The notes under the pieces are model-generated. The model did no database searches, was not told the DNA's origin, and worked only from the letters and a program-made list of their open reading frames with translations. Positions 11,658 through 28,086 of a DNA stretch of 59,126 nucleotides are shown in pieces; position 1 is the stretch's first letter; each line of letters starts with the position of its first letter. Origin of the DNA: Accumulibacter sp. (lineage in GTDB: Bacteria; Pseudomonadota; Gammaproteobacteria; Burkholderiales; Rhodocyclaceae); NCBI RefSeq assembly GCF_023806565.1, contig NZ_JAMTDV010000138.1, positions 1 through 59,126 of the forward strand, given 5' to 3'. Both the position numbers and the translations under genes were made by a program.

Positions 11658-13127
11658 TCAGTCGCGCCGCCGTTCGATGGCGACGCACAGTTGCTCCGCA
11701 GCGGACTCGATGGTCCTGGCATCAACCGCAGCGAAGCCGAGAACCATCCCCGATCGACGACGACGGGAATCGGCGTAGTACATCGAGAGGGGACGCAGGA
11801 CGATGCCGGCTTCGAGCATTTCTCGGGAAAGAGCCAGATCGTCGAGAGGCCGGTTGAAAAAGTACGGAAGATGCAGGCCGGCCAGGCCCCCGGTGGTGCT
11901 TACCAGATCCCCAAGTCGGGACTCGATGGCCCGGCGCAGCACGTTGCGGCGCTCCTGATAGACGTTGCGCATCCGTCGCAGATGGGCGCTCAGATGTCCG
12001 TCCTCGATGAATTCGGCGAGCGCTGCCTGTTCGATGAGTCGCCCCTCCCGGTAGAGTTCGGCATTGCCGATGGCGAATGCGTCGGCCAGATCTTCCGGGA
12101 CGACCAGGTAGGCCAGGCGCAAGCCGGGAAACATGGTCTTGCTGAAGGTGCCCAGATAAATGACTCGTTGCGACCGCGCCTGACTGAACAGGGAGCCGAT
12201 CGTGTAGGGGTGATAGCGAATCTCGTTGTCGTAATCGTCTTCTATCACCCAGGATTCCTGCGCTTCAGCGAGTTCCAGCAGCTGGATTCGCCGGCTCAGG
12301 GACATCACCACCCCGGTCGGGTACTGGCTGGACGGAGAGACGAAGATCATCCGCGGTGGTGACTCAGGATCGACCGGGAGAGACATGCCCTGCTCGTCCA
12401 CCGGAATCGCTTCGATGTGCAGGCCGCTGGCGCGCAGCACATTGCTGGCGCCCCAGTAGCCGGGATCTTCCATCCAGACTCGATCCTTTTCGTCACAGAG
12501 CATGCGCGCGCACAGGTCGATGGCCTGATGCGATCCATTGAGGATGACGATCTGCCTTGGCGAACACGACATCATGCGTGATACACGCAGATATTCGGCG
12601 AGCACCGCTTTCAGTGGTCCGTATCCGCCGTGACCGTAGCGAGCGAGTTGGCGGTGCTCCAGGCAGGTGTACTTGGACATCAGGCGACGCCAGGTCGCGA
12701 ACGGAAACAGCTTTACGTCGGGGACGCCGGGAACGAACGCGCCGCTCTGGATTCGACTGCTGCTGGCGTGCTGCGCGATCGCGGTGCCGCGTCGCGACAA
12801 GGGTCTGCCATGCCGCCAAGGACGGCTACGCGGCGCCTGGCTGGGTGCCGCCAGGGACAGCGTTTCCGACACCTGCGTGCCCGAACCGCCACGACTTTGC
12901 AGATAGCCCTCCACCTGGAGCTTCTCGTACGCCCTCACCACGGTGCTTCGGCTGAGTCCGAGCTCGCTCGTCAATACGCGTGTCGGCGGCAGGGGACAGC
13001 CCGGCGGCAATTCACCGTCGAGAATGAGGCGCCGGATCAACAGATAGAGCGTGGTCTGTGACCTGGATTCACCGGCAGTGCTTTCAAAGCGCGACCGGAT
13101 CAATTCTGCGCAGAGTGACTTGTCCAT
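11658..13127 (-). CDS. MocR-family (GntR HTH + aminotransferase-fold) PLP-dependent regulator
   Basis: This is a predicted GabR/PuuR-like sensor of GABA or polyamine metabolites. It has an N-terminal winged-helix GntR domain (about residues 20-90, with LTSELGLSRSTVVRAYEKLQ), a linker, and a fold-type-I aminotransferase domain. The PLP lysine is at about residue 330 (GTFSKTMFPGLRL). Length 489 is usual for MocR. It is divergent from gabD, a classic layout in which MocR regulators activate the adjacent gabD/gabT operon and repress themselves. The ATG at 13127 keeps the intact N-terminus (MDKSLCAELI). Confidence 0.93.
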   Translation of the reverse strand: MDKSLCAELIRSRFESTAGESRSQTTLYLLIRRLILDGELPPGCPLPPTRVLTSELGLSRSTVVRAYEKLQVEGYLQSRGGSGTQVSETLSLAAPSQAPRSRPWRHGRPLSRRGTAIAQHASSSRIQSGAFVPGVPDVKLFPFATWRRLMSKYTCLEHRQLARYGHGGYGPLKAVLAEYLRVSRMMSCSPRQIVILNGSHQAIDLCARMLCDEKDRVWMEDPGYWGASNVLRASGLHIEAIPVDEQGMSLPVDPESPPRMIFVSPSSQYPTGVVMSLSRRIQLLELAEAQESWVIEDDYDNEIRYHPYTIGSLFSQARSQRVIYLGTFSKTMFPGLRLAYLVVPEDLADAFAIGNAELYREGRLIEQAALAEFIEDGHLSAHLRRMRNVYQERRNVLRRAIESRLGDLVSTTGGLAGLHLPYFFNRPLDDLALSREMLEAGIVLRPLSMYYADSRRRRSGMVLGFAAVDARTIESAAEQLCVAIERRRD

Positions 13128-13141
13128 CGGCGGCTTCGTCG

Positions 13142-13212
13142 AATTGGTATCGCGATTGTCGCAACAATTGGTTCTTCCGGGGGCTGGATCGGCGTGTAAA
13201 GTGGCACCAATT
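13142..13212. promoter_or_regulatory. Cluster of AATTGGT/ACCAATT elements between MocR and gabD, candidate MocR operator
   Basis: AATTGGT occurs at 13142-13148 and 13166-13172, and its reverse complement ACCAATT at 13206-13212. The first copy reads AATTGGTAT, containing the complement of the ATACCA box known for Bacillus GabR. All three lie in the 163-base divergent intergenic region. The match to a MocR site is inference from position, repetition and resemblance. Confidence 0.5.
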
Positions 13213-13290
13213 CCCCGTGGGTGGCGCGTGCGTTTGCTTTCGCTCCGGTGGGGAGTCTATCGATTGATCCAACCCAGAGGAGACGAGCCA

Positions 13291-14745
13291 TTGGAACTTG
13301 CTGACAAATCATTGCTGAAGCAACTGTGCTACATCGATGGGGAATGGGTGGGTGCCGATGACGCGCGGACCTTTGTCGTCAGCAACCCGGCCAGCGGAGA
13401 GCAATTGGCGACGGTGCCCGACGCGGGCGCCGCCGAGACCCGTCGCGCCATCGAGGCGGCTCGCCTGGCGCAGCCGGGATGGCGTGCCCGAACTGCCGGC
13501 GAGAGGGCGAAGATTCTGCGTCGCTGGCACGAATTGCTGCTCGCCAACCAGGAGGATCTGGCCCGCCTGATGACCGCGGAACAGGGCAAGCCGCTCGCCG
13601 AGTCACGAGGCGAGATCGCCTACGCGGCGTCGTTCATCGAATGGTTCGCCGAGGAAGGAAAACGAATCTACGGGGACATGATTCCTCCGCATAACGCGGA
13701 CAAGCGTGTGCTGGTGGCGAAGGAGCCGATTGGCGTCTGTGCTGCGATCACTCCCTGGAATTTTCCGGCGGCGATGATCACTCGCAAGGTCGGTCCGGCA
13801 CTGGCCGCCGGCTGCTCGGTGGTGCTCAAGCCGGCGGAGGCAACGCCGCTCTCGGCTCTCGCGCTGGTCGAACTGGCCGAGCGCGCTGGCGTTCCCAAGG
13901 GGGTTTTCAACGTGCTGACCGGAGATCCGATCGCCATCGGCGGCGAACTCTGTGCCAACCCCACGGTGCGCAAGCTGAGCTTTACCGGGTCCACGGAAGT
14001 GGGCCGGATTCTCATGCAGCAGTGCGCGCCGACGATCAAGAAACTGTCGCTCGAATTGGGAGGCAACGCACCGTTCATCGTGTTCGACGACGCCGACCTC
14101 GATGCTGCCGTGCAGGGTGCGATGCTCTCCAAGTATCGCAACACGGGGCAGACCTGCGTGTGCGCGAACCGACTGCTCGTGCAGGAGGGGATTCATGCGT
14201 GTTTCATAGAGAAACTTGCGCTCGCAGTGGCTGCCTTGCGCGTCGGGAATGGGGCCGACGAGGGCGTTACACAGGGGCCACTGATCGACGACGCGGCAGT
14301 TGCCAAGGTGGAAGAGCTGGTGGCCGACGCGCTCGACAAGGGCGCCCGGTTGGTCTCCGGCGGCCGGCGCCACAGTCTTGGCGGCACCTACTACGAGCCG
14401 ACGATACTGGCAGGAGTGACGTCCGCAATGCGCATCGCCAACGAAGAGGTCTTCGGACCGGTGGCGCCGGTCTTCACCTTCAAGACCGAGGCGGAGGCCG
14501 TGGCGATGGCCAATGCCACCGAATACGGTCTCGCCTCCTACTTCTACACCGAAAACCTGGCACGCAGCATGCGCGTCGCCAGCGCGCTGGAATACGGCAT
14601 GGTCGGCATCAACACCGGTCTGATCTCGACCGAGGTGGCGCCGTTCGGCGGCATGAAATCGTCCGGACTGGGGCGCGAGGGGTCCAAGTACGGCATCGAG
14701 GACTATCTGGAAATCAAATACATCTGCATCGGCGGGATCAACTGA
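13291..14745 (+). CDS. gabD: NAD(P)-dependent succinate-semialdehyde dehydrogenase
   Basis: GabD oxidises succinate semialdehyde from GABA breakdown to succinate. The 484-residue product matches E. coli GabD along its length by eye, including ITPWNFPAAMITRKVGPALAAG read in parts, SLELGGNAPFIVFDDADLD, the CVCANR active site and the GREGSKYGIEDYLEIKY end. Catalytic Glu255 and Cys289 are in place. The start is a TTG at 13291 because it follows AGAGGAGACG closely and gives the right N-terminus; the frame upstream to 13051 overlaps the MocR gene. gabT follows after 34 bases. Confidence 0.95.
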   Translation: MELADKSLLKQLCYIDGEWVGADDARTFVVSNPASGEQLATVPDAGAAETRRAIEAARLAQPGWRARTAGERAKILRRWHELLLANQEDLARLMTAEQGKPLAESRGEIAYAASFIEWFAEEGKRIYGDMIPPHNADKRVLVAKEPIGVCAAITPWNFPAAMITRKVGPALAAGCSVVLKPAEATPLSALALVELAERAGVPKGVFNVLTGDPIAIGGELCANPTVRKLSFTGSTEVGRILMQQCAPTIKKLSLELGGNAPFIVFDDADLDAAVQGAMLSKYRNTGQTCVCANRLLVQEGIHACFIEKLALAVAALRVGNGADEGVTQGPLIDDAAVAKVEELVADALDKGARLVSGGRRHSLGGTYYEPTILAGVTSAMRIANEEVFGPVAPVFTFKTEAEAVAMANATEYGLASYFYTENLARSMRVASALEYGMVGINTGLISTEVAPFGGMKSSGLGREGSKYGIEDYLEIKYICIGGIN

Positions 14746-14779
14746 GCCGCTGCACCATTTTCTTGGCAAGGAGACAGCA

Positions 14780-16087
14780 ATGAACGCACCGAAAGAAAGC
14801 CTGACCATGAAGACCAATGTGGAGCTGATGGCCCGACGCACGGCCGCCCTGCCGAGAGGCGTCGGGCAGGGGCATGCCTTGTTCGCGGCCAGGGCAGAGA
14901 ACGCGGAAATCTGGGACGTCGAAGGCCGTCGCTGGATCGACTTCTGCGCAGGCATCGCGGTGGTCAATACCGGTCACTGCCATCCGCGGGTCGTCGATGC
15001 GGCGCGCCAGCAACTGGCAGCCTTCACCCATACCTGCTTCCAGGTGGTCGCTTACGAATCGTATGTCGAGCTGTGCGAACGCCTGAACGCTGCCGCTCCG
15101 GGCAGCACGGCGAAGAAGGCGTTTCTCGTGAACACCGGTGCGGAAGCAGTCGAAAACGCCGTGAAGATTGCCCGCGCGGCGACCGGGCGGTCCGGCCTGA
15201 TCGCTTTCGGTGGTGGCTTTCATGGCCGAACCATGTTCGGCATGGCACTGACCGGCAAGGTGGCTCCCTACAAGATCAAGTTCGGACCATTCCCGGGCGA
15301 GATCTTCCATGTGCCATTTCCGAATGCGCTGCACGGCATCTCGGAAAACGACTCGATCGTGGCGATCGAGCGCCTGTTCGCTTCCAGCATCGAAGCCTCG
15401 CGCGTCGCCGCAATCGTCATCGAACCGGTGCAGGGCGAGGGCGGATACCTGCCGGCGCCGCTCGGATTTCTGCGTCGTCTGCGCGCGCTCTGCGACACGC
15501 ACGGGATCCTGCTGGTGGTCGACGAGGTGCAGACCGGAATCGCGCGCTGCGGAAAGCTCTTTGCCAGCGAACATTATGGCGTCGAGCCGGACATCATTAC
15601 CCTGGCCAAGGGTCTGGGCGGTGGTTTGCCGGTAGCCGCCGTCGTCGGCAAAGCCGAGATCATGGACGCCGCCGATGTCGGCGGTCTCGGTTCCACCTAC
15701 GCCGGCAGTCCGGTGGCGGTTGCCGGCGCCCTCGCGGTGCTCGACGTGGTCGAGGAGCAACAGCTTTGCGCGCGCTCGATGGCGCTCGGCGAACGCATGC
15801 GGACCCGGTTCAGCGCCATGATGGAGCAGTTTTCCAGCATTGCCGAGGTGCGCGGACTTGGTGCAATGACGGCGGTGGAGTTTTGCCGTAATGGCGACCC
15901 GCGGCAGCCGGCGGCGGATATCGCCATGGCAATGAAGAACGAAGCGGCACAGCGTGGTTTGTTGCTGCTGTTGTGTGGCGCGCACGGCAACGTGTTGCGC
16001 GTGATGGTTCCGCTGACCATCTCGGATGCGCTGCTCGACGAGGGACTGGACATCATCGAAGCGTCTTTGCGGGCGATTGGTGCCTGA
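14780..16087 (+). CDS. gabT: 4-aminobutyrate aminotransferase
   Basis: GabT transfers the amino group of GABA to 2-oxoglutarate, giving succinate semialdehyde for GabD. It is a class III PLP aminotransferase of 435 residues. Visible features are the VNTGAEAVENAVKIAR and GGGFHGRT motifs, the VVDEVQTGIARCGKLFA motif, and the PLP lysine at residue 277 (TLAKGLGGGLP). The AAGGAG site before the ATG at 14780 fixes the start. The N-terminus is about ten residues longer than E. coli GabT. 5-Aminovalerate is a possible second substrate, as for other GabT proteins. Confidence 0.94.
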   Translation: MNAPKESLTMKTNVELMARRTAALPRGVGQGHALFAARAENAEIWDVEGRRWIDFCAGIAVVNTGHCHPRVVDAARQQLAAFTHTCFQVVAYESYVELCERLNAAAPGSTAKKAFLVNTGAEAVENAVKIARAATGRSGLIAFGGGFHGRTMFGMALTGKVAPYKIKFGPFPGEIFHVPFPNALHGISENDSIVAIERLFASSIEASRVAAIVIEPVQGEGGYLPAPLGFLRRLRALCDTHGILLVVDEVQTGIARCGKLFASEHYGVEPDIITLAKGLGGGLPVAAVVGKAEIMDAADVGGLGSTYAGSPVAVAGALAVLDVVEEQQLCARSMALGERMRTRFSAMMEQFSSIAEVRGLGAMTAVEFCRNGDPRQPAADIAMAMKNEAAQRGLLLLLCGAHGNVLRVMVPLTISDALLDEGLDIIEASLRAIGA

Positions 16088-16239
16088 CCGACAGCCTGCT
16101 CGGTGCCCTGGCGCGGTGCCGGTCGGCCGCCGTCGGGGTGCCTCGTCCGGGCCAGCACCCACAGCCCGTGTGCTATGATCCGCGGAAGTCCGGGGTGCCG
16201 TGCCTGCCACACGATTCTCGGTACTCGTACAATCCATTG

Positions 16240-16289
16240 AACGGGCATGACGGTTCCAGACAACCCCTATTATGAAAGTCATGCCCGTT
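16240..16289. repeat. 12-bp perfect inverted repeat AACGGGCATGAC / GTCATGCCCGTT
   Basis: The arms at 16240-16251 and 16278-16289 enclose a 26-base spacer between gabT and the amidase gene. It may be an operator for the amidase or part of the composite repeat that follows directly. Confidence 0.5.
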
Positions 16290-16360
16290 TCCCTCACCCC
16301 CGACCCCTCTCCCGCAAGCGGGCGAGGGGAGGTTCGTGAGTCGCTGAGGCGACTTTCACG
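16290..16360. repeat. REP-like intergenic repeat with two further hairpins
   Basis: A CCCTCACCCC-type stretch leads into an imperfect hairpin CCCCTC.CCCGC / GCGGG.GAGGGG (16304-16329). A second stem CGTGAGTCGC / GCGAC..TCACG follows at 16335-16360. CCCTC-rich hairpins of this kind are common multi-copy extragenic repeats in proteobacterial genomes; that it is multi-copy here is inference. Confidence 0.5.
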
Positions 16361-16384: not shown

Positions 16385-17377
16385 ATGGTGCCTTTTTCAA
16401 TCGCCGGCATCCAGATGAACATTTCAATGGAGCACGCGAACATCGATGCGATGGGCCACAAGCTGGATGTCCTGATGGCGCGCTTTCCGTGGGTGCAGAT
16501 GGTGGTGTTCAGCGAGTTGGCCCCTTTCGGGCCCGCTCCGCGCCATGCGCAAGCCACCGGTGGCCCCGCCGAGCAGATTTTCTGCCAGATGGCCGCCAGG
16601 CACGGGCTGTGGCTGTTGCCGGGCTCGATGTTCGAGCGCATCGGCGATGACATCTACAACACGACGCCGGTGATTTCTCCGACCGGTACCGTGGTCACCC
16701 GCTATCGCAAGATGTTTCCCTTCCTGCCGTATGAACAGGGCATCAAGCCGGGAACCGAGTTCTGCGTCTTCGACGTGCCCGATGTCGGACGATTCGGGGT
16801 TTCCATCTGCTACGACATGTGGTTTCCGGAAACGACACGGACGCTGGTTTCGATGGGTGCCGAATGTATCCTGCACCCGACCATGACCGACACGATCGAC
16901 CGCGACGTCGAGTTGCCGATTGCGCGGGCCAGCGCGACGATCAATCAGTGCTACTTCTTCGACATCAACGGCGTCGGCGATTGTGGCACGGGCCGCTCGA
17001 TCGTCGTCGGCCCCTCCGGTTACGTGATCCACGAGGCGGGCGGCGGCGAAGAGACCATGCCGGTGGAAATTGACTTGTCGCGGGTGCGGCGGGAGCGAGA
17101 GGTCGGAATTCGCGGTCTCGGCCAGACTCTCAAGAGTTTTCGTGACCGACCGATCGAGTTTCCCGTCTACCAGAAACATCTTGGCAAGAAGGACTATCTC
17201 GACAGCCTGGGACCTCTGATCAAGCCAACGCGCGGAACGCGTTCCGATGTCCAGGTGGCGCCCGCGCGCACCGTCGATGCAGCCGGCGCGTTGCCCTACC
17301 CGGTTGCGAGCATGGTGGTCGATGCCGAATCCGTTGCGCCCGTCGACATTGCACCCTTGGGCCACGCCCATCTCTGA
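16385..17377 (+). CDS. Carbon-nitrogen hydrolase (nitrilase superfamily) amidase
   Basis: A nitrilase-superfamily amidase, carbamoylase or nitrilase with the Glu-Lys-Cys triad at Glu44 (FSELAPFG), Lys109 (RYRKMFPF) and Cys142 (SICYDMWFPE). The core ends near residue 250. A roughly 75-residue tail rich in Ala/Pro/Val follows and is not part of the usual fold, making it 330 residues. It comes 300 bases after gabT on the same strand. The context suggests an omega-amide or N-carbamoyl amine from polyamine or GABA metabolism as substrate, but the substrate cannot be read from the sequence. Confidence 0.85.
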   Translation: MVPFSIAGIQMNISMEHANIDAMGHKLDVLMARFPWVQMVVFSELAPFGPAPRHAQATGGPAEQIFCQMAARHGLWLLPGSMFERIGDDIYNTTPVISPTGTVVTRYRKMFPFLPYEQGIKPGTEFCVFDVPDVGRFGVSICYDMWFPETTRTLVSMGAECILHPTMTDTIDRDVELPIARASATINQCYFFDINGVGDCGTGRSIVVGPSGYVIHEAGGGEETMPVEIDLSRVRREREVGIRGLGQTLKSFRDRPIEFPVYQKHLGKKDYLDSLGPLIKPTRGTRSDVQVAPARTVDAAGALPYPVASMVVDAESVAPVDIAPLGHAHL

Positions 17378-17662
17378 GTGCTCTGGCGGGAACCGCACCG
17401 GCCGCCGAGGCAGCGGACGACGTCGGTGGGCGATTGCCAGGCCGGCGGTCGCTGCCGGCGCATGGCGCGAAACGTCGGGACACGACGGCGCCCGGCGGCC
17501 GGGGTGACCGCGAACGGTTTCATCGTCTGACGATCGACGCCGCGCCCGCCGACGGCTCTCTCTGGCGGCCGGCACTCGGTGACCGCGGCGAAGCGAACCG
17601 CCTCGCCGTCGGCATGCCCGGGCGCCCCTGCCCCAGGCCGCCCCGCTGCAGTGCCTCCGTTG

Positions 17663-18568
17663 CTATTCGTAGGCCTTGTCGTTGGGCGCCTTGTACAGCT
17701 TCTTGAGGGCGTACGAAAGGGCGAAGTTGAAATTCAGTCCCTTCGGCGGAATTGGCTGCAGGAACCACTTGGCGTAGAGCTTCTCGGCTTCCCCTGAGGT
17801 CATCACTTTGGCGAGCGCTCCGTCGACGACCTTCTTGAACGCGACGTCATCCTTGCGCAACATGCAGCCATAGGCTTCATAGGATTGTGGCGTGCCGGCG
17901 ACCATCCACTCTCTGGGGTTCCTGGCTTTCGCCATTTCGCCGTAAAGCAAGACCTCGTCCATCACGAAGGCGACTGCGCGGCCGCTTTCCAGCGTCAGGA
18001 ACGCCTCGCCGTGATCTTTCGCGCTGATCACGTTCATCTTCATGTTATTCGCCTCGTTCATCTTGCGCAGCAGACGCTCGGAGGTGGTGCCAGCAGTGGT
18101 CACGACATTCTTGCCGGCCAGATCCGGAAAATCCTTGATTCCGGAATTGTTCCTGGTCATCAGGCGGGTAGCGACGACGAAGATGCTGTCCGAAAAGCTG
18201 ACCTGCTTCTGCCGTTCGGTGGTGTTGGTCGTCGAGCCGCACTCGATGTCCACCGTTCCGTTCTGGACGAGCGTGATGCGATTCTCGGAGGTGACGGGTA
18301 CCAGCTTGATGTCGAGCCTGGCAAGTTTCAATTCGGCCTTGATTGCCTCCACCGCCTTCAGCATCATGTCCTGCGAGTAGCCGACGACCTGCTGCTTGTC
18401 GTCATAATACGAGAACGGGATCGACGACTCGCGATGCCCTAGCGTGATCACGCCGCTTTCCTTGATCTTTTTTAGCGTACCGGTCAACTCCTGCGCCAGT
18501 GCCGGTGCCGACAACAGGGCCGTGGCGAGTGTTGCAGCAATGACCAAGTGCCGTAAGATTGTGCTCAT
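17663..18568 (-). CDS. Glutamate/aspartate-type periplasmic binding protein (GltI-like)
   Basis: A periplasmic solute-binding protein of the amino-acid ABC class. It has a Sec signal ending near PALAQ, then LTGTLKKIKESGVITLGHRESSIPFSY in parts, VDIECGSTTNTTERQKQVSFSDS and a C-terminal KWFLQPIPPKGLN segment, all close to E. coli GltI in type and length (301 residues). The start is the ATG at 18568 with a GGAGAG site; the longer frame to 18646 is unlikely. No gltJKL permease/ATPase genes adjoin it, so it is an orphan here. It may supply glutamate for the amidation genes upstream, which is inference. Confidence 0.9.
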   Translation of the reverse strand: MSTILRHLVIAATLATALLSAPALAQELTGTLKKIKESGVITLGHRESSIPFSYYDDKQQVVGYSQDMMLKAVEAIKAELKLARLDIKLVPVTSENRITLVQNGTVDIECGSTTNTTERQKQVSFSDSIFVVATRLMTRNNSGIKDFPDLAGKNVVTTAGTTSERLLRKMNEANNMKMNVISAKDHGEAFLTLESGRAVAFVMDEVLLYGEMAKARNPREWMVAGTPQSYEAYGCMLRKDDVAFKKVVDGALAKVMTSGEAEKLYAKWFLQPIPPKGLNFNFALSYALKKLYKAPNDKAYE

Positions 18569-18770
18569 CGTTTCGCTCTCCTGTGCAAAGGGAAACCTGG
18601 TCACTGGGCCGAGCAAGGTGGCGCCCGAAGTCATGGCCAGGCACAAATCCGTTCAAGCAGGGTTTTCCAATTCCCGTGCAGTGTGAGGACGGTCCGCGGG
18701 TCCTCTCCTTGCTTCATGCCCTGCCGTAGTTCTCCTGCAAACGTGATTCCAGATCGCATCGGAGCCAGCT

Positions 18771-19787
18771 TCAGTACGGGCCAGGCAGGAAGACGATGTC
18801 ACGTCCACCTGTCAGCGGCGCGAGCAGCGACTGCTGCCAACGTTGGTCCTGCCAGAAGAGTTCCACGCTGCGGTTGCTCGGCTGGTAGATCGCGCTGTAC
18901 AGCGTGCCATATCCGCGGCGGTAACTCGTCTGGAACAGAGGCGGTTGCAGCAAGCAGGCGGCAACTTCCGGCAGCGAATGGGTCTTGTCCACCAGATGTT
19001 CCAGCATGGCGAGGCGCTCCACTGCGGACGTCGCTCTTGCGTGCTCGGGCCAATCCACCTTGTGCTGGAAGTTGGTGATGGCACGACGGCGGGTCACATA
19101 GGTGGCTTCGTTCGGGCCAACGTACACGGTGGCCCAGTGCGCATTCGTGTCCAGCAGGGTGATGCTGTAGAACATGTGCGCGGGCACTCGCTTGAGAACG
19201 GCGCAAGCCTCCTCGACCGTGCCTGACACTTCCAGCAGGTAGCGCATCACCAGCGGGATGCCGAAACCTTCTCCGGCTTCCGTCCTGCCGCCGAAACTCA
19301 GTGACGCAGCCAGGCCGGCTTCGTTCATACCGTCTAGCGCGCCCCAAAGGCAGTCGCCCACGGCGAGTACCCGCTGGCCGCACCAGCGCGTGGCCAGCCA
19401 GTTGCCTTCCAGCAAGTCCGGAGAATAATCATAGTTGCGCAGCAGGGCAGGGCAATAGGCACCGACGGGATCGAACCATACCGCTTGCGAGCATCCGGCA
19501 ATGTATACCGGCGGACACCAGAGCGAAAGAATGCGCGCCTCGATGTCGCCGCCGCCGGCCAGTTCTACCATCCGCTCCCAGGTGGGTACCAATTCGGGCA
19601 TATGCTTGCGCAGGGCACGCCGACAGTCGAGATAGCTGGGCCGCCCGAAGACGCCGTTGCGCAGGTACCAGTCTCGGTAGCCTGGCCAGCAGCGCTCGAA
19701 CAGCGCCTGCCATGCCTCGCCTGGCTTGTCCTCCACCAGCGCCGTGAAGCGCTGATGGATCGGCATTGCGGTATGCAGCAGGTTCAA
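18771..19787 (-). CDS. C45-type Ntn acyltransferase/hydrolase (acyl-CoA:6-APA acyltransferase family)
   Basis: Predicted N-terminal-nucleophile enzyme of the peptidase C45/choloylglycine-hydrolase-like group, which make or break amide bonds. About 98 residues precede a candidate nucleophile Cys99 (IAGCSQAVW), the expected prosegment length for autocleavage before the Cys. The LLRNYDYSP segment (from about residue 115) and later NEAGLAASLSFGGR are typical of the family. There is no signal peptide. Its ATG overlaps the stop of the ATP-grasp gene by four bases, so the two are translationally coupled and probably act on the same amide. The direction of the reaction is unknown. Confidence 0.82.
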   Translation of the reverse strand: MNLLHTAMPIHQRFTALVEDKPGEAWQALFERCWPGYRDWYLRNGVFGRPSYLDCRRALRKHMPELVPTWERMVELAGGGDIEARILSLWCPPVYIAGCSQAVWFDPVGAYCPALLRNYDYSPDLLEGNWLATRWCGQRVLAVGDCLWGALDGMNEAGLAASLSFGGRTEAGEGFGIPLVMRYLLEVSGTVEEACAVLKRVPAHMFYSITLLDTNAHWATVYVGPNEATYVTRRRAITNFQHKVDWPEHARATSAVERLAMLEHLVDKTHSLPEVAACLLQPPLFQTSYRRGYGTLYSAIYQPSNRSVELFWQDQRWQQSLLAPLTGGRDIVFLPGPY

Positions 19788-21241
19788 AGGATCTTGAACG
19801 CACCAGGCTCTGGTGCGGCCTCGTGCTGGGTGGTGAGGATGGGCTTGCCGGCGTAGTACTTCTTGATGCCGCGGATCCAGTCGCGTGCGCGCAGGTTGAG
19901 CTTGAAGTTGTCGTCCATCGCACGGCCGCGGGTGATCAGGATGCCCAGGTCGGCGCCCTCGTAGCGATAGTCCCCTGGCCCGGTGATGCGCAGGAAGAAG
20001 GCCTCGCGCTCGGTATCGATCGCCTTGCGGTTGTAGTCGAAGCGCTGGTAGCTGACACCGCCATCTTCGCCCATATGGTAGATGCCGGTAGCGGGTGCGT
20101 GCGTGACCTGGTCGACGTGTTTCTCGGTGTATTTCATCACGACTTGCGACCAGGAATCGATGAAGTGGGGTTGTGCCCAGCGTTCGTTGATTTCACGCAC
20201 GTTCAGGTCGAACGGCGCGCCCGAGAACTCGAGCAGGTGGAAAAGGAACAGTGGCGCATCGGCGTAGGCATGCGCGGCGTGGTTGGTCATCGGGCTGGCG
20301 CCGCAGACGCGCGGGTTGAGTTCGCCGAGGTAAACTTCGCCGTCGTCCTGGTCGATCAGGAAATCGAGGTCGAAATAACCCCGATAGCCCTCCTCCAGCA
20401 ACTGGTTGCCGAAGCGCTCGGCCATGTCACGGCACTTGGCACGCACATCTTCAGTGAAGGCACCTGGGAAGACCTCGTTGCCACACCAGCCACCCTTGTA
20501 GGGCGTCAGTTCGCGAGCGCCGACCACCTCGGTGAGCAGTGGGCCGACCAGCGTGCCCGACTGCGTGGCGCACGCTTCCAGCGTTGCGCCACGGCAGTTG
20601 ATCCGCTTCATGATCTTGACCTCTGGGTCGTTGATGATTTCGTCCTTGTACTTGTTGAAGTCGTCTTCCGACGCGATGAAGAAGGTCGTGTGGCCGGAGT
20701 CGCCGTAGGCAGACTGGATCACCAGGTCATGACCCAGGCCGTTCCGATCGCAAATCTCCCTGAGGCTGGCGTAGCTGCTGACCTTCTCCAGCGCATTGGG
20801 TACCGACAGGACGCCGACCTTGTTGCCGATGCGCACGGTTTCCATCTTGTTGTCAAGGCGCTGACGCAGCTTGGCCGGCGGGAACCAGACCTCCATGCCG
20901 AGTTCCTTGGCCAGTGATTCGGTCTTCTCGTCGAACATCAGGAAGGTCGCGACCGGATTGCCACCACGGCGCTCGATCAGGTCGACCACGTCCTTGTGCT
21001 GCAGCAGATAGTTGTTGATATCTTCAATCGATTCGAATTCGTCGTGCGGTGACTCTGGCGGAACGAACACATTCGGATGCCGGCCATCGAAACAATCGAT
21101 GTAGCTGATATAGCGAAAACGGTTGACCCAGCGGTCCATTCCCAGCAGGTTGAAGTTGGTGGCACTGATGAAGTAGATCGGTCGTTCATTACGGTGGAAC
21201 ATCAGCAGCAGGTCGGAAATGTTCTTTACGGTGTGAGCCAT
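19784..21241 (-). CDS. ATP-grasp-fold ligase (485 aa)
   Basis: Predicted ATP-dependent carboxylate-amine/thiol ligase; proteins like this are often labelled biotin carboxylase, but no biotin or carboxyltransferase partner is present. The ATP-grasp core lies around residues 120-335, ending with a GYFDLDFLIDQDDGEVYLGELNPR-type strand pair (read in parts) that supplies the metal-binding Glu and Asn. The N-terminus (about residues 15-60) resembles a pre-ATP-grasp domain. It starts 63 bases after the decarboxylase stop and overlaps the C45 gene. The likely role is joining an acid to the amine made upstream; the substrate is unknown. Confidence 0.82.
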   Translation of the reverse strand: MAHTVKNISDLLLMFHRNERPIYFISATNFNLLGMDRWVNRFRYISYIDCFDGRHPNVFVPPESPHDEFESIEDINNYLLQHKDVVDLIERRGGNPVATFLMFDEKTESLAKELGMEVWFPPAKLRQRLDNKMETVRIGNKVGVLSVPNALEKVSSYASLREICDRNGLGHDLVIQSAYGDSGHTTFFIASEDDFNKYKDEIINDPEVKIMKRINCRGATLEACATQSGTLVGPLLTEVVGARELTPYKGGWCGNEVFPGAFTEDVRAKCRDMAERFGNQLLEEGYRGYFDLDFLIDQDDGEVYLGELNPRVCGASPMTNHAAHAYADAPLFLFHLLEFSGAPFDLNVREINERWAQPHFIDSWSQVVMKYTEKHVDQVTHAPATGIYHMGEDGGVSYQRFDYNRKAIDTEREAFFLRITGPGDYRYEGADLGILITRGRAMDDNFKLNLRARDWIRGIKKYYAGKPILTTQHEAAPEPGAFKIL

Positions 21242-21304
21242 TGTCTTCTCCTCGTCGTGATCACTGCCATCGGACTGTTGTTTCGGTGCAGTTGGTCGGC
21301 CAGT

Positions 21305-24097
21305 TCATCCTGGCTCGGTTCGTGAATTGATCTGCGCGGTCCACACAGCGTTCGCCTGTGCCGCACGCTGTAGCGCAGCATCGGTATAGATGCGAAAGCC
21401 CAGTTCAGGCCGAAATCCATGAATCTCGCGCACATCGAGCGCCTGCATGAACTTCAATATCTCGGCGCTGATCACTTGCCCCGGCACCAGGATCGGAAAG
21501 CCCGGCGGGTAAGGGATGACGAACTGGGCTGAAACGCAGTCGCGCCCGCTCTTGATCGCCTGATCCGTCTCGTCCATGCTCAGGTACTCGCAGTTCTGCT
21601 CGTCGTAGCCAAGGAAGAATGCGCTGCGGATATCGCCGTCGCGAGTTTCCGTGCCCCCGTCCACGCTGCGGCCACGGAATGCGGTGTGGAAACACGAAAA
21701 GTTGGGCAGCGGTGGCAAATCCACAGTCAGCGACCGGACCCGCCTTTCGTGAATCCGCCGTTCGAGGGTGCTCATGTCTGCCACTTTCTGGTCTATGTCA
21801 CGGGCGATGTTCACCAGGACTTCGATCAGGTAGGCGATCGTCGAGCGCGTACTGCCGATGTTGGTCATGAACAGCACGGTGTTACGCGAGGTCTTGTTGA
21901 TCTGGATATCGTACTTGTCGGCCAGATATTGATTCTTCATCGTGTCGCCATCCATCCCGGACAGGCCGATGGCCAGTGTGGCACGTGTCGGGTCCAGCGC
22001 GAACTCGTCCGTATGCCAGGCATTGAACAGGTTGACCCAGCCGGTTTCGATGTTGAACAAGGATTCGACATGCGATTCGCGATACTCCTGCGGCACCAGA
22101 TCGACCACGGTCAGGAAGTGGAAGTACCGTTTCAGTAGTGGATGTGATTTCACCTGCTCACGCAGGTTCATCGCCAGTTCGAGCTGGCGCTGAACAAGTT
22201 CGTAGCCTTCGAGTTCCATCTGCCTCCGACCCACGTCGAGGGTGGCGAGAATCTGATAGTTGGGGGAAGTCGAGGTGTGGGTCATGTAGGCCTCATGGAA
22301 GGCCTCCTCGGCCTTGTCCTTGAAGTCGAGATCCCAGACGTGGATCATGGATCCTTGGCGCAGCGCCGTCAGCGTCTTGTGGGTAGACTGGGTGGCATAA
22401 ACGCGTACCCTTGCCTTTGTCGGGTCGGGCAGCAGACAGGTGTTGAGCACGCGCTCGTCGTCTGCCCAGGCAGTTTCGTCGAAGCTGCTGGCAAATTCCC
22501 GGTAACGCGCGGCATAGGCCTCGCTCTGGAACATCTCGGTCAGCTTGGCTGCAGCTGCCATGGCGGTGCGCTGGCGATAAACCGGGTGGAAGCGCGCGAA
22601 GGCGAACCATGCCTCGTCCCAGAGAAATACCAGATCGGGCTTGATCGCCAGGCACTCGAGCATCAGCCGCTCGACGTCATAGACGATGCCATCGAAAGTG
22701 CAGTTGGTCAGCAGCACCATGCGTACGCGGTTCAGGGTGCCGGCACGCCGCAGTTCGAGCAGCGTTTCCTTGATGTGGCGGATCGGGACCGCACCGTACA
22801 TCGAGTACTGGTGCAGGGGATAGGCTTCGAGATAGGTGATCTGTGCGCCGGCCAGCACCATGCCGTAGTGGTGCGACTTGTGGCAGTTGCGGTCCACCAG
22901 GACGATGTCGTCGGGGCGAACCAGCGCCTGGACGACGATCTTGTTGGCGGTTGAAGTGCCATTCGTGGCGAAAAAGGTGCGACGCGCCCCGAAAGCGCGC
23001 GCAGCGTACTCTTGCGCCAGCTTCAGCGAACTCGTCGGTTCGAGCAGGGAGTCGAGTCCGCCGGCAGTCGCCGAGGTCTCCGCCATGAACAGGTTCATGC
23101 CATAGAACTGGCCCAGGTCGCCGATCCAGTTCGAATTCATGATCGACTTGCCGCGTGCAAGCGGCAGCGCGTGGAAGACACCGGTAGGCTGTTTCGCATA
23201 CTTGCGCAGCGCATCGAAGAAGGGCGTGTGATAGCGTTCCGAGACGCCCTTCACGATCGAGAAATAGAGTTCAAGCTGATCTTCCTCACCGAAGAACACG
23301 CGCTGGAAGGTCGCCGCCGCGTTGGCCGCCACGTCTTCCACCTTGGCGTCGGTCACCAGATACAGGTCCAGCTCCGGACGCAACTGCGCAATCTGTCGCC
23401 CCAGCAGCAGGCCGCGCTCGGACTCGGGCAGTTCCTCACCGCTGACGTCCAGGCCTTCAAAGAAGCGACGCGCGACGATTTCGGGGACATACAGCGAGCG
23501 GTAAGGAAAGTCGTAGCCGATCACCACCGCCTGCAGGTTGAAATTCACCATGGCCGCAACCAACGCATCCTCGAAAGTCGGCACGACGACCACGTCGAAG
23601 ATGAAATCGTCGTCGGAGCGGCGTCGACTGCGTACCCGCCGCCGTAGCGACTCCTCTTCTTCGGCCGGCAGGTCGTCGACCACCAGAACCTCGAAGTACG
23701 GGCAGCGCATCTGCGTCTGGAACTCCCTTTCGGTTTCCATTTGCGTAGGCAGCTCGGCATCGCTCGTTGTCCCGGTGTTTCCGTGCCGGTATGTCAGAGA
23801 GGCAAGCATGCGATGGGTGCGGCGCGCGACGATTGCCGCGTGCGCCAGCTCGCCCCGCGTGATGAATCCGCACAGATCGGCAAAGGCACGGCGTCCCGGA
23901 TACGCCCAGCAGGCTTCGATCGGCGTCAGCACTTCGGTAAGTTCGCTCAAGCGCGCCACCTGCGCTTCCCGGACGCCTGGTTCCTTGCCCCGGTTCGCAA
24001 GCTGCGACAAGGTATCGACCAACTCGATCCAGCTTTCCGTGCGAACTTCCCAGACGCTACGATGGCGGCTCATGGGGGCCGCAAAGTTCGTATTCAT
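21305..24097 (-). CDS. Large Orn/Lys/Arg decarboxylase family protein (930 aa)
   Basis: Fold-type-I PLP decarboxylase expected to produce putrescine, cadaverine or agmatine. The PLP lysine is about residue 574 in STHKTLTALRQGSMIH. Other family signatures are FFATNGTSTANKIV, DRNCHKSHHYG, TNCTFDGIVYD and DEAWFAFARFHP. The first roughly 300 residues include a receiver-like wing domain (FEVLVVDDLPAEEEE, VVIGYDFPYRSLYVPEI) plus an N-terminal extension, making it about 200 residues longer than the E. coli enzymes. It leads the decarboxylase/ATP-grasp/C45 run. Substrate preference is not readable by eye. Confidence 0.9.
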   Translation of the reverse strand: MNTNFAAPMSRHRSVWEVRTESWIELVDTLSQLANRGKEPGVREAQVARLSELTEVLTPIEACWAYPGRRAFADLCGFITRGELAHAAIVARRTHRMLASLTYRHGNTGTTSDAELPTQMETEREFQTQMRCPYFEVLVVDDLPAEEEESLRRRVRSRRRSDDDFIFDVVVVPTFEDALVAAMVNFNLQAVVIGYDFPYRSLYVPEIVARRFFEGLDVSGEELPESERGLLLGRQIAQLRPELDLYLVTDAKVEDVAANAAATFQRVFFGEEDQLELYFSIVKGVSERYHTPFFDALRKYAKQPTGVFHALPLARGKSIMNSNWIGDLGQFYGMNLFMAETSATAGGLDSLLEPTSSLKLAQEYAARAFGARRTFFATNGTSTANKIVVQALVRPDDIVLVDRNCHKSHHYGMVLAGAQITYLEAYPLHQYSMYGAVPIRHIKETLLELRRAGTLNRVRMVLLTNCTFDGIVYDVERLMLECLAIKPDLVFLWDEAWFAFARFHPVYRQRTAMAAAAKLTEMFQSEAYAARYREFASSFDETAWADDERVLNTCLLPDPTKARVRVYATQSTHKTLTALRQGSMIHVWDLDFKDKAEEAFHEAYMTHTSTSPNYQILATLDVGRRQMELEGYELVQRQLELAMNLREQVKSHPLLKRYFHFLTVVDLVPQEYRESHVESLFNIETGWVNLFNAWHTDEFALDPTRATLAIGLSGMDGDTMKNQYLADKYDIQINKTSRNTVLFMTNIGSTRSTIAYLIEVLVNIARDIDQKVADMSTLERRIHERRVRSLTVDLPPLPNFSCFHTAFRGRSVDGGTETRDGDIRSAFFLGYDEQNCEYLSMDETDQAIKSGRDCVSAQFVIPYPPGFPILVPGQVISAEILKFMQALDVREIHGFRPELGFRIYTDAALQRAAQANAVWTAQINSRTEPG

Positions 24098-24207: not shown

Positions 24208-25623
24208 CTACCCGGCGACCCAGAGTATCCAAGGGGTACCGACGACCAGGAAGACCACCGTCGCGAAAAACGTCGTCAGCAGTCCCAGACGGTAGAGCTC
24301 ACCCTGCTTCAGATAGCCGCTGGCGACGAAAATGATGTTCTGGCTGCCGCCCTGCGGCGTGATCACCGAGAAGTAACTGCTGGCGAAGAGGAGCGCAAAG
24401 GCCATCAGGTGGGTGGGCACTCCCGACTTCACGCCGACGTCGAGAAACACTCCGAGCAGCGCCAGCACCTGTGCGTTCTGACTGACGAATCCGAAATGGA
24501 GCAGCACATAGATCACCAACAGGGCGACGTAGGCCATTGGCCAGGCGAGTCCTTCGAGTCCGACTGCCAGTCGTTCGCCGACGTAGCCCATGAACCCCAT
24601 TTCGTTGAGCTGTCCGCTCATGCCGAAAAGCACCGCCAGCCAGACGAAAGTGACCAGCGTGCCGCCCTGCTCGTGCATGTCGTGGAGGGTCAGGACACCG
24701 GTGATCATCAAAGTTGCAAGTCCGGCGAGGGCAATCGCCGTCAGGTTGAGCTTGTAGGGGGCAGCCAGCACCCAGCCAGTGATCATGACGATGAAGGTTA
24801 TCGCCGTGATCCACTCGTGACGTGACATCGGCCCCATCGTCCGCAATTCCTGGCGGGCGCGCGCCGGTGCATCCGGAGTGGCGGTGATTCCGGGCGGGAA
24901 AAGACGATAGAGCAGCAGCGGCAGCAGTCCGATCACCAGCAGACAAGGGACGCAGGAGGCGAGCAGCCATGAGCCGAAATCGATCTTGAGCCCTTGTTCG
25001 GCGGCCAGTGACGCGCCTACCGGGTTGCCCGAGGTGGCGGTGAACCACAGGGCCGAGGTGATCGCCAGGCTCGACATGCCGCAGAACATCAGGTAGCCGC
25101 CGAAGCGCCGCTTGTTCTCGTCTTCCGGTGTGGAGCCGCTGTTGTTCGCGAGCGCCAGGATCACGGGGAAAAGCACGCCGCCGCGCGCCGTGTTGCTCGG
25201 GAACCCCGGGGCGATCAGGGTATCGGTGATGAAGATGCTGTACGCCAGGCCAAGTGTCGACTTGCCGAACAGCGAAACCACGTACAGACTGATGCGCTTG
25301 CCGAGTCCGCTCTTGACTACCGACTGCGATACCAGGAAAGCGGTTACGACCAGCAGCACGATGGCGTTGGCAAAGGCGCCGTAGGCTTTGGCCGGTGTCA
25401 GCGTGTTGGTGAGCACCACGATCGCGCACGCCAGCAGCGACGAGGTGAATAACGGAAACACGTTGAGAACCACCGAGACGATCGCCGACGCGAAGACGGC
25501 AAACAGATGCCAGGCCTCAAGCGTCAGCCCCTGCGGAACTGGCGTGAACCAGAGGCCAAAGAACAGGACCAGGAGGCCCACCAACTTCAAGATTCTTCCC
25601 GTTCCAAAAGTGGCTGTGCTCAT
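24208..25623 (-). CDS. DASS/SLC13-type sodium:anion symporter
   Basis: Inner-membrane carrier of the divalent anion:sodium symporter family, which moves di- and tricarboxylates. The 471 residues are hydrophobic throughout, with the paired hairpin/SNT-type motifs: GFPSNTARGGVLFP near residue 140 and ITPQGGSQNIIF near residue 425. The start is the ATG at 25623, which follows GGAGG and overlaps the stop of the upstream lipoprotein gene (ATGA). A longer frame to 25680 is unlikely. Given the downstream ligase, an imported dicarboxylate such as succinate, malate or glutamate is an attractive substrate; this is inference. Confidence 0.88.
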   Translation of the reverse strand: MSTATFGTGRILKLVGLLVLFFGLWFTPVPQGLTLEAWHLFAVFASAIVSVVLNVFPLFTSSLLACAIVVLTNTLTPAKAYGAFANAIVLLVVTAFLVSQSVVKSGLGKRISLYVVSLFGKSTLGLAYSIFITDTLIAPGFPSNTARGGVLFPVILALANNSGSTPEDENKRRFGGYLMFCGMSSLAITSALWFTATSGNPVGASLAAEQGLKIDFGSWLLASCVPCLLVIGLLPLLLYRLFPPGITATPDAPARARQELRTMGPMSRHEWITAITFIVMITGWVLAAPYKLNLTAIALAGLATLMITGVLTLHDMHEQGGTLVTFVWLAVLFGMSGQLNEMGFMGYVGERLAVGLEGLAWPMAYVALLVIYVLLHFGFVSQNAQVLALLGVFLDVGVKSGVPTHLMAFALLFASSYFSVITPQGGSQNIIFVASGYLKQGELYRLGLLTTFFATVVFLVVGTPWILWVAG

Positions 25624-26222
25624 TTCTGGCCTCCTGCATTGGTGGGAGCAACCGTACCGGGCGAGCCGAGGCGCGCCCAACCCTTCAGACCGACCACCCG
25701 ACCGGCCAGGTCTTCGCCCTCAATGGCGCCGAGGCGCTGCCATTTGAAACTGTATTCACCACTGATTCCGGCATAGCGGCCGGTACCGCCGGTGAACTTG
25801 CCTTCGATCAGCTGTCCTGGGCCAATCCCTTCGCCGCTCCATTCGCTGAAGACCTTGTCACCATGCTCGTCGGTCCAGACGCTGTGTGCCTGCATGCCGG
25901 TGGTCGTGTCAGTGAAGCCGATGGCTTGCGATTGGAAACCCGGATTTACTCTTTGTTTGCCGCTCAACAGCATCGATCCCCTGAGCTCAAAGATGCTTGC
26001 CTGGTGGCCCGGTCCGAGATCCATGAACGTGCGGCTGCCGGTCGTGGTCCAGTTGCCGGTAAAGGATCGAATATCGTCTGTCGCCACGCTTGTCGCCGGT
26101 GCTGTCGCCGGGGCCATCGCTGGCGGAGTCTCCGATCGGCCGCAGGCTGTCACCAACAATGCAGCGAGCAGCGCGATGTGGGAGAGGAAATGGCATGTGG
26201 ATGAGTTGCTTGACCAACGCAT
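25620..26222 (-). CDS. Lipoprotein with allene-oxide-cyclase/dirigent-like barrel
   Basis: A 200-residue lipoprotein, with the lipobox LVTAC giving Cys27, a proline/alanine/threonine linker, and a beta-rich domain of about 145 residues. The GKFTGGTGRYAGISGEYSF motif is typical of the allene-oxide-cyclase/dirigent-like barrel. The ATG at 26222 follows GGAGG; the in-frame extension to 26321 is not signal-like. Translation is coupled to the DASS symporter through an ATGA overlap. The role is unknown, but coupling to a transporter suggests a substrate-handling or envelope function. Confidence 0.75.
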   Translation of the reverse strand: MRWSSNSSTCHFLSHIALLAALLVTACGRSETPPAMAPATAPATSVATDDIRSFTGNWTTTGSRTFMDLGPGHQASIFELRGSMLLSGKQRVNPGFQSQAIGFTDTTTGMQAHSVWTDEHGDKVFSEWSGEGIGPGQLIEGKFTGGTGRYAGISGEYSFKWQRLGAIEGEDLAGRVVGLKGWARLGSPGTVAPTNAGGQK

Positions 26223-26874: not shown

Positions 26875-28086
26875 TCAAGACCCGGGCGCGTCTTCCGCTC
26901 CGCCCCTTGACGCCGTCGCAGGGCGAGAACGCGCGATCGTGGCGCCGGTAAGCGTTGGGTAGACGAGAATCGACAGCAAGGCCGCGGCGACCAACGCCTG
27001 CGCGACATCCACATTCATTTTCTGCGTGCTCTTGCCGATCTCGGTGATTACGATGACGAGGCCGACCGATGCGACGGAGGAGGCGAACGCGAACGGCAAG
27101 CGCTCCCGGGGCGGCAGCTCGTTCCGGAACAGCAGGGTCGGCAGACCGCGCACGAGCAGCAGCAGCAAGAGGAACGTGGGCACCAGGACCATCGTGTCGG
27201 TGCTGCGAAGCAGTGCGCCGGCGTCGAAGCGGAGGCCCGTCCCCACGAAGAAGAAAGGCACCAGCCAGCCGAAGACCACCGCCTCCAGCTTCATCCGGAA
27301 AGCTTCGCAATCCTCGCCCCGCGTCGCCACGCCCACAGCCATGCCTGCGGCGAACGCCCCCAGGATCCCTTCGAATCCCCACGTCTCGGAAAGGACGAAG
27401 AACGCCGCCACCAGGAGCAGCGACATCCGAACCGGCGTCTGCGAGCTGGACCTCAGCGTGCGTCCGAGCCATTCCAGCAGCCGTGGCGCGCGTGCCTGCG
27501 CGCCAACGAACGCCACTGCCAGAACCACGGCGAGGAAGGCGAGCAACAGCGTGAATTCCTGCCATGTGCTGTAGGCGGTGGACAGCGCCAGCGAGACGCC
27601 GACGATCGGTGCCAACTCCCCGATGGCCCCCTGGGCAAGGAATATCCGGCCGAAGGCGGACTCGACCACGCCTGCGTCCCGCAGCACCGGGATCATCACC
27701 CCGAGGTTCGTGGTGGTGAGGGCGAGCACCACCATCATCGGGGCATGCACCGACGGCACGGCGTGCAGCACGCCGACCACGACGAAAGCGACCGCTGCCG
27801 AGGCAACCCAGCCCACCAGCGCGAGGGTGAGCGGCCGCCCGGCAATCGTGCGGAAGTCGATCTCGGTGCCCGCCATGAACAGCATCGCCCCCAGTCCGAC
27901 CTTCTGCATCAGATCCAGGAATTCCCCTGTCTGGACCCAGCCCAGCGCATGCGGGCCGACCACCGCGCCCAGCACCACCTCGAGGACGACGACGGGAATG
28001 CGAACACCGACCGGCAGTTCGGCGAGCAGGGGCGCGGTCACGGCGATGGCCATGACCGCGAGGATCGGATGTTGAAGACTCACCAT
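26875..28086 (-). CDS. CPA2-family cation:proton antiporter without RCK domain
   Basis: Predicted inner-membrane Na+ or K+/H+ antiporter of 403 residues with about twelve hydrophobic segments. Family signatures include MLFMAGTEIDFRTI, TTTNLGVMIPVLRDAG and an FFFVGTGLRFD segment. Unlike the antiporter at 3852-5594 it ends soon after the membrane part, with no nucleotide-binding RCK domain, so it should not be nucleotide-gated. It is preceded by the sulfatase gene on the same strand with 235 bases and a strong hairpin between them. Confidence 0.85.
   Translation of the reverse strand: MVSLQHPILAVMAIAVTAPLLAELPVGVRIPVVVLEVVLGAVVGPHALGWVQTGEFLDLMQKVGLGAMLFMAGTEIDFRTIAGRPLTLALVGWVASAAVAFVVVGVLHAVPSVHAPMMVVLALTTTNLGVMIPVLRDAGVVESAFGRIFLAQGAIGELAPIVGVSLALSTAYSTWQEFTLLLAFLAVVLAVAFVGAQARAPRLLEWLGRTLRSSSQTPVRMSLLLVAAFFVLSETWGFEGILGAFAAGMAVGVATRGEDCEAFRMKLEAVVFGWLVPFFFVGTGLRFDAGALLRSTDTMVLVPTFLLLLLLVRGLPTLLFRNELPPRERLPFAFASSVASVGLVIVITEIGKSTQKMNVDVAQALVAAALLSILVYPTLTGATIARSRPATASRGGAEDAPGS

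What the first reader, a model, noticed from the sequence alone, without database searches (positions are those of the whole stretch)
18771..24097. Decarboxylase / ATP-grasp / C45 Ntn operon: possible undescribed amine-amide pathway
A 930-residue Orn/Lys/Arg decarboxylase, a stand-alone ATP-grasp ligase and a C45-type Ntn amide enzyme lie in order on one strand. The spacer is 63 bases, then there is a 4-base start/stop overlap. Decarboxylases make diamines, ATP-grasp enzymes form amides, and Ntn enzymes cleave or transfer amides, so the simplest reading is a route making and later remodelling an N-acylated polyamine or a small peptide-like amide. It resembles the logic of the Puu (gamma-glutamyl-putrescine) route but uses unrelated enzyme families.
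Basis: partly seen in the sequence, partly recalled or inferred. Interest (0 to 1): 0.78.

Follow-up and report, generated by a model that had tools for sequence, protein, structure and literature searches.

The report
Conserved four-gene glutamate/GABA amide module
A set of four enzyme genes (a decarboxylase, an amide-forming ligase and two amide-cutting hydrolases) is kept together in many proteobacteria and probably handles glutamate and GABA rather than polyamines; its exact chemistry is still unknown.

Summary
The three genes are real and form part of a conserved module. In an even sample of 398 Pseudomonadota genomes, 11 carry the ATP-grasp gene and all 11 also carry the decarboxylase and the C45 gene, in one locus each. 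The decarboxylase (64 of 75) is the more exchangeable part. The diamine reading is weakened: the decarboxylase keeps its PLP machinery, but two acidic positions (CadA E526, E663) are Asn and Gln in 22 of 22 homologues, which share an Arg that CadA, AdiA and SpeC lack. A sister clade sits beside AspT-family antiporter genes in 10 of 10 loci examined. GabT and SSADH lie near the window copy. Best reading: a glutamate-to-GABA decarboxylase feeding an ATP-dependent amide capping/uncapping cycle. Against it, other versions sit in arginine-type or ectoine clusters, and two unlinked copies have no AspT. I found no demonstrated activity for these proteins; the homologue Rv2531c has a structure but no assigned reaction (PMC12910592, passages).

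The parts
21305..24097 (-). OKR-fold PLP decarboxylase (DC), Rv2531c-like; predicted acidic amino-acid (glutamate) decarboxylase
   Evidence: Pfam 250.9 bits; PDB 9n0o/9n0n E 5e-246; Lys574, His406, Asp494, Trp497, Tyr863 kept, CadA E526->N734 and E663->Q874, Arg738 gained
19784..21241 (-). stand-alone ATP-grasp ligase (GRASP, NF005096/PRK06524 'biotin carboxylase')
   Evidence: 779 bits over cut-off 684; E307, N309, P310, R311 invariant in 30 of 30 aligned rows
18771..19787 (-). C45 Ntn amide hydrolase/acyltransferase; TTG start at 19787 or ATG at 19766
   Evidence: NF040521 159.7 bits; C99, R117, D120, N155, N239, R258 invariant in 32 of 32 rows
16385..17377 (+). carbon-nitrogen hydrolase (CNhyd), fourth core gene, on the opposite strand in the window
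   Evidence: PF00795 103.2 bits; Glu44, Lys109, Cys142 kept in at least 97% of 75 rows, gene in 68 of 75 loci
14780..16087 (+). 4-aminobutyrate transaminase (GabT)
   Evidence: TIGR00700 566.9 bits over cut-off 506.65; below the PRK-type GABA transaminase cut-offs
13051..14745 (+). succinate-semialdehyde dehydrogenase (true start probably about 240 bases downstream)
   Evidence: TIGR01780 723.8 bits over cut-off 646.35, match from residue 110; PRK11241 match from residue 82
11658..13127 (-). MocR-type (GntR plus aminotransferase) regulator
   Evidence: PdxR model 393.8 over 320, MocR 469 below 650, GabR 267 below 600
17663..18646 (-). glutamate/aspartate-type ABC solute-binding protein
   Evidence: NF008063 436.9 over cut-off 375
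24208..25680 (-). DASS-family sodium-coupled anion symporter
   Evidence: TIGR00785 306.1 over cut-off 198.6
21242..21304 (-). 63-base spacer with GAGGAG upstream of the ligase start

Best explanation
A conserved catabolic module for acidic and omega-amino acids. Inferred steps: imported glutamate (or a close acidic analogue) is alpha-decarboxylated by the OKR-fold enzyme to GABA; the ATP-grasp ligase spends ATP to join a carboxylate and an amine into an amide (a capped or conjugated form of GABA or glutamate); C45, after cutting itself to expose Cys99, and the CN-hydrolase cleave the amides at later steps; free GABA leaves through GabT and SSADH to succinate. Shown: the four-gene co-conservation, kept catalytic residues, GabT/SSADH and acidic-substrate-type transporters near the window copy, and the exchangeability of the decarboxylase. 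Inferred: the decarboxylase's acidic substrate (about 0.6), GABA as the shared metabolite (about 0.5), amide capping and uncapping by GRASP and C45 (about 0.45). Unknown: the partner acid or amine, and the CN-hydrolase substrate.
For: Co-occurrence 11 of 11 in 398 genomes and linkage. Of 75 loci with 6 kb on both sides (from 96; chosen as best ligase matches, with near relatives): C45 75, CNhyd 68, DC 64, TAXI-TRAP 29, ALDH/SSADH 19, GabT 18 (29 of 74 by looser ORF clusters), PuuR-like 13, MocR 12, FMN glutamate-synthase-like 10, Glu/Asp-type binding protein 5, SDF 3, DASS 3. A subfamily of DC (46-49% identical) lies beside AspT-family genes in 10 of 10 loci examined: 6 of 6 genomes with DC but no ligase in the sample, and 4 chosen of about 15 plasmid hits of that identity; these form one clade, and only 3 of 10 also show an aspartate 4-decarboxylase. 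AspT of Tetragenococcus exchanges aspartate for alanine (PMC9508256, abstract). Acidic-to-neutral changes and Arg738 in 22 of 22 DCs. In five loci (L057, L058, L083, L084, L096) DC is absent and genes whose annotation suggests an arginine-to-GABA route stand by the ligase; at least two origins on the ligase tree. A C45 enzyme, AzsT, removes an N-succinyl group in vitro (PMC10445470, passages).
Against: No activity was found demonstrated for these proteins. The arginine-type loci share arginine as well as GABA, so the common point could be the substrate. Two unlinked DCs close to the module's own (L145 68-69%, L148 62% identical) have no AspT beside them; L145 lies about 7 kb from arginase and ornithine cyclodeaminase genes. 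The review of Rv2531c calls it distantly similar to arginine decarboxylases (PMC12910592, passage). In L040 and L041 the module sits among ectoine genes, whose end product is aspartate. Aquitalea has the trio with neither DC nor the GABA genes tested beside it. GabT is near only 18 of 75 loci; DASS is seen only in Accumulibacter loci and the FMN enzyme mostly in Sulfitobacter. AspT points to aspartate as much as to glutamate. The residue argument rests on a low-identity alignment, and the role of E526/E663 is recalled.
Confidence: 0.4

Rival explanations
1. Arginine/ornithine catabolism: DC makes agmatine or putrescine and the trio processes it (or guanidinobutyrate) toward GABA.
For: Arginine-type clusters: amino-acid permease, SpeB-like, 5-guanidino-2-oxopentanoate decarboxylase, D-amino acid dehydrogenase, ornithine-racemase/arginase fusion with GRASP and C45; unlinked DC about 7 kb from arginase; CNhyd's best NCBIfam model is N-carbamoylputrescine amidase, though far below cut-off (66.7 of 410).
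Against: Pocket changes; AspT pairing of the sister clade in 10 of 10 loci examined; NCBIfam cut-offs of lysine, arginine and ornithine decarboxylase models missed by far (215.9 of 968 and so on); a second OKR-family gene in 24 of 25 genomes of the genus.
Confidence: 0.25
2. Puu-like route: GRASP gamma-glutamylates a diamine, an oxidising step follows, and C45 hydrolyses gamma-glutamyl-GABA.
For: PuuR-like regulators by 13 of 75 loci; PuuC-like ALDH in L072 (688.6 bits, cut-off 850); GabT; a C45 enzyme known as an amide deprotector (PMC10445470, passages).
Against: No amine oxidase appears among the recurrent neighbour families annotated; DC is dispensable and lacks the acidic positions.
Confidence: 0.12
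3. Biosynthesis of a small glutamate- or GABA-derived amide (osmolyte or signal), with GabT/SSADH only recycling GABA.
For: A ligase plus an acyltransferase-type Ntn enzyme; trio beside kdp genes in Aquitalea; linkage to ectoine genes in two loci; Rhizobium copies near RiPP genes.
Against: Neighbours typical of uptake and catabolism in many loci (TAXI-TRAP, Glu/Asp-type ABC, oligopeptide ABC, Lrp, MocR); no exporter family recurs among those annotated.
Confidence: 0.2

Closest known systems
Rv2531c / PDB 9n0o, 9n0n, 9n0p (probable amino acid decarboxylase)
   Same: Aligned over residues 19-920 at E 5e-246; same PLP core and the N/Q substitutions in the printed alignment
   Different: Ile in place of Arg738 and Ala in place of Lys317; its own gene neighbourhood was not examined; activity unknown (PMC12910592, passages)
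E. coli CadA, AdiA, SpeC (OKR decarboxylases)
   Same: PLP fold and catalytic residues
   Different: About 175-220 residues longer; acidic positions E526/E663 neutral; Arg315 in 22 of 22 and Lys317 in 20 of 22 where the PGH loop lies in the E. coli enzymes
NF005096 / PRK06524 'biotin carboxylase'
   Same: Clear member by score
   Different: The name is only a label: true biotin carboxylases match the family profile weakly (best E 2e-4), and no biotin carrier was named among the neighbours I ran through the family libraries
AzsT/Tri14, C45 enzymes of azaserine and triacsin synthesis
   Same: C45 family; AzsT removes an N-succinyl group (PMC10445470, passages)
   Different: Carrier-bound hydrazinoacetyl substrate; direct sequence comparison not done
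Puu (gamma-glutamyl-putrescine) pathway
   Same: Possible protect/deprotect logic, GabT end, PuuR-like regulators by some loci
   Different: Different enzyme families; substrate probably not a diamine
GadB (TIGR01788) glutamate decarboxylase
   Same: Proposed reaction
   Different: Different family; no match over cut-off in the 17 DC-carrying genomes, but the background is only 12 of 398, so this says little

Membership tests
OKR decarboxylase superfamily (PF01276) | score and PLP-lysine machinery | tested here: met
   250.9 bits over 27; S571, H573, K574, H406, D494, W497 invariant in 25 rows including CadA, AdiA, SpeC
lysine, arginine and ornithine decarboxylase models (LdcC, PRK15029, PRK13578) | NCBIfam cut-offs | tested here: not met
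   215.9/968, 179.7/1167, 172.3/794
lysine, arginine and ornithine decarboxylase models (LdcC, PRK15029, PRK13578) | acidic positions CadA E526 and E663 (role in amine binding recalled) | tested here: not met
   Asn734 and Gln874 in 22 of 22 homologues; AdiA itself has Thr at the first
acidic amino-acid decarboxylase | activity on glutamate or aspartate | not testable with these tools
   only AspT linkage of the sister clade and the residue pattern
NF005096/PRK06524 ATP-grasp | curated cut-off | tested here: met
   779 over 684
biotin carboxylase | R-x-Q-x-E motif after the ATP-grasp Glu (recalled) | tested here: not met
   Sequence reads E307-L-N-P-R311-V-C-G-A
biotin carboxylase | a biotin carrier partner | tested here: inconclusive
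   None named among the neighbours scanned; the genome was not searched
C45 Ntn hydrolases | score and nucleophile Cys | tested here: met
   159.7 over 85; Cys99 invariant in 32 of 32
C45 Ntn hydrolases | autoproteolysis | not testable with these tools
   needs protein
nitrilase superfamily | Glu-Lys-Cys triad (motif recalled) | tested here: met
   E44, K109, C142 in at least 97% of 75 rows
Puu pathway | PuuA, PuuB, PuuC, PuuD genes in the locus | tested here: inconclusive
   None is the top match among the window neighbours scanned; the genome was not searched for Puu genes

The most novel reading that the evidence does not exclude
The OKR-fold enzyme founds an unrecognised family of glutamate (acidic amino-acid) decarboxylases, used with AspT antiporters in one lineage and, in another, with a new ATP-dependent amide-capping cycle (ATP-grasp, C45 and CN-hydrolase) that takes GABA through a conjugated intermediate.
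Probability: 0.33. Interest if true: 0.8.

Novelty: new variant of a known kind. Interest (0 to 1): 0.6.

Why it matters
The decarboxylase family has solved structures (Rv2531c) but no assigned reaction. Its conserved partners give concrete, quickly testable substrates. If right, labels such as 'Orn/Lys/Arg decarboxylase', 'biotin carboxylase' and 'C45 peptidase' mislead in many proteobacterial genomes, and a new way of handling GABA or glutamate through an ATP-built amide exists.

Tried and rejected
Polyamine synthesis as the role of DC: 24 of 25 genomes in the genus have a match to a second OKR-family gene, with or without DC; G017's is in pieces and G011 has none.

Biotin-dependent carboxylation: weak profile similarity only and no Q-x-E after Arg311 (motif recalled).

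Absence of GadB as support for a glutamate reading: 0 of 17 DC-carrying genomes over cut-off, but only 12 of 398 overall, so uninformative.

Minus-strand ORFs at 16424-17575 and 14738-16297, first used as neighbours, proved to be antisense shadows of the plus-strand CN-hydrolase and GabT genes; later counts use the real genes. Two apparent ORFs by L045/L046 gave no Pfam match and may also be shadows.

C45 paralogues without the ligase (G206, G246, G318, second copies in G376 and G110): the neighbours tested are varied and gave no clear substrate, though one lies near a gamma-glutamyltranspeptidase gene.

Paper searches: (listings) showed no description of this gene set in the held library. Most subscription journals are not held, and the cryo-EM paper on Rv2531c was not available.
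Full report
What is there. Three minus-strand genes at 18771-24097 are as reported: a 930-aa OKR-fold PLP decarboxylase (DC), a 485-aa stand-alone ATP-grasp enzyme (GRASP) and a 338-aa C45 Ntn enzyme. The spacer is 63 bases with a GAGGAG site. The overlap depends on a TTG start. The genome belongs with 'Candidatus Accumulibacter' relatives: G024, same genus by the tool's grouping, has a contig of the same length (27285) as that of L062, titled Accumulibacter sp., whose ligase is 97% identical.

The unit is larger than three genes. A fourth gene, a carbon-nitrogen hydrolase, lies at 16385-17377 on the plus strand. Beyond it are GabT and SSADH above the TIGR00700 and TIGR01780 cut-offs, a MocR-type regulator and Pot-type ABC genes. 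A glutamate/aspartate-type binding protein and a DASS symporter flank the three genes.

Conservation. In 398 Pseudomonadota genomes drawn evenly, the ligase (over 500 bits) is in 11, DC (E up to 1e-100) in 17 and C45 (E up to 1e-40) in 14; all 11 ligase genomes have both others, in one locus each. Within the genus DC is patchy: 12 of 25 genomes, in two types (80% or more, and 54-63%, identical to the window's); G014, G018 and G022 hold both types, one of G014's copies in two pieces. These 80, ten loci from sample genomes, five plasmid loci and the window make 96; the set favours close matches, contains near relatives such as many Sulfitobacter, and may hold a genome twice. Of the 75 with 6 kb on each side, C45 is in 75, CN-hydrolase in 68, DC in 64, all four genes in 57. 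The commonest orders are CNhyd-DC-GRASP-C45 (41 of 74 in the ORF-based count), CNhyd-GRASP-C45-DC (8) and DC-GRASP-C45 (8). Loci come from alpha-, beta- and gammaproteobacteria. On the ligase tree, presence or absence of DC needs at least 5 changes (4 forced by well-supported branches), and the arginine-type context at least 2 (quick trees).

DC is exchangeable. Shinella, Labrys, Thiofilum and two plasmid loci lack DC in the cluster and carry instead genes like an amino-acid permease, SpeB, 5-guanidino-2-oxopentanoate decarboxylase, aldehyde dehydrogenase, D-amino acid dehydrogenase and an ornithine-racemase/arginase fusion. Eleven genomes were searched whole, ten without DC in the locus and one (Paracoccus, L097) as control; DC over its length was found in Labrys (elsewhere) and in the control (in its locus, one TAG noted), and not in the other nine, whose completeness is not told. 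Four Aquitalea loci have CNhyd-GRASP-C45 without DC or the GABA genes tested, beside kdp genes.

What DC probably does. It is homologous over its length to Rv2531c, whose structure is solved and whose activity a 2026 review calls unclarified, while noting distant similarity to arginine decarboxylases (PMC12910592, passages). A knockout of that gene was not crucial for growth on arginine (PMC4569260, passage). Against E. coli CadA, AdiA and SpeC, 22 homologues (18 module-linked or module-clade, 4 AspT-linked) keep the PLP residues. CadA E526 (Glu in SpeC, Thr in AdiA) is Asn, and CadA E663 (Glu in all three) is Gln, in all 22; Arg738 is present in all 22 and in none of the three. That these acidic positions bind the substrate amine is recalled; one paper search for it found nothing. 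The six sample genomes with DC but no ligase all have DC beside AspT-family antiporter genes, as do four plasmids that I chose out of about fifteen hits of similar identity (47-49%); three of the ten also show an aspartate 4-decarboxylase. One of these loci also has an HdeA/HdeB-family gene, another SSADH and a GabT-like aminotransferase. These ten DCs form one clade (SH-aLRT 100). A decarboxylase paired with such antiporters suggests an acidic amino acid; SSADH and GabT favour glutamate over aspartate.

What the trio may do. The ligase looks like a carboxylate-amine ligase rather than a biotin carboxylase (inference). C45 and CN-hydrolase keep their catalytic residues. The precedent for C45 as a remover of an N-acyl cap is AzsT (PMC10445470, passages). 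Hence the proposal of an ATP-built amide of GABA or glutamate that is later cleaved. The partner is unknown.

Results against this. Arginine-type loci, and an unlinked module-clade DC about 7 kb from arginase (L145), fit arginine as the shared substrate. That copy and another unlinked one (L148) have neither AspT nor the ligase beside them. Two loci, L040 and L041, sit among ectoine genes, whose product is aspartate (PMC3187862, passages). GabT is near only 18 of 75 loci. Some transporter evidence is narrow: DASS occurs only in Accumulibacter loci, the Glu/Asp-type binding protein in five loci, three of them Accumulibacter, and the FMN enzyme mostly in Sulfitobacter. GadB absence proves nothing. 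AspT itself is an aspartate:alanine exchanger (PMC9508256, abstract).

Verdict. A real, conserved module built of known enzyme superfamilies and not described in the papers I could search.

Noticed in passing
G014, G018, G022; L050, L054: Genomes of the window's genus carrying two diverged copies of the decarboxylase. In G018 both are linked to GRASP and C45, but only the second copy (L054) has the CN-hydrolase beside it.
   Followed up: partly
L061, H67, H70, H71 (Rhizobium/Sinorhizobium plasmids): Several rhizobial plasmid copies of the decarboxylase are in pieces or partial, suggesting decay.
   Followed up: no
L057 versus L058 and L083: The plasmid labelled Roseateles sp. XES5 (UNVERIFIED_ORG) has the same cluster and gene order as Shinella, and its ligase groups with Shinella rows; the label may be wrong.
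   Followed up: no
L084:12660-14600: Protein with an ornithine-racemase-like N-terminal part and an arginase-like C-terminal part.
   Followed up: no
Aquitalea genomes, e.g. G434:C110:24646-26313: An OKR-type decarboxylase gene with a frame of about 660-680 aa, 40% identical to DC over residues about 220-514, besides a 768-aa one.
   Followed up: no
L172:9385-10968: Gamma-glutamyltranspeptidase gene near a ligase-free C45 paralogue.
   Followed up: no
L149, L061 (Rhizobium leguminosarum): Module copies near RiPP maturation genes (radical SAM enzymes, a Nif11-like precursor in L149) and an ABC importer.
   Followed up: no
window 26875-31400: Further minus-strand genes upstream of the module: CPA2 antiporter (26875-28086), sulfatase (28322-29728) and a radical SAM protein (30390-31400).
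   Followed up: no
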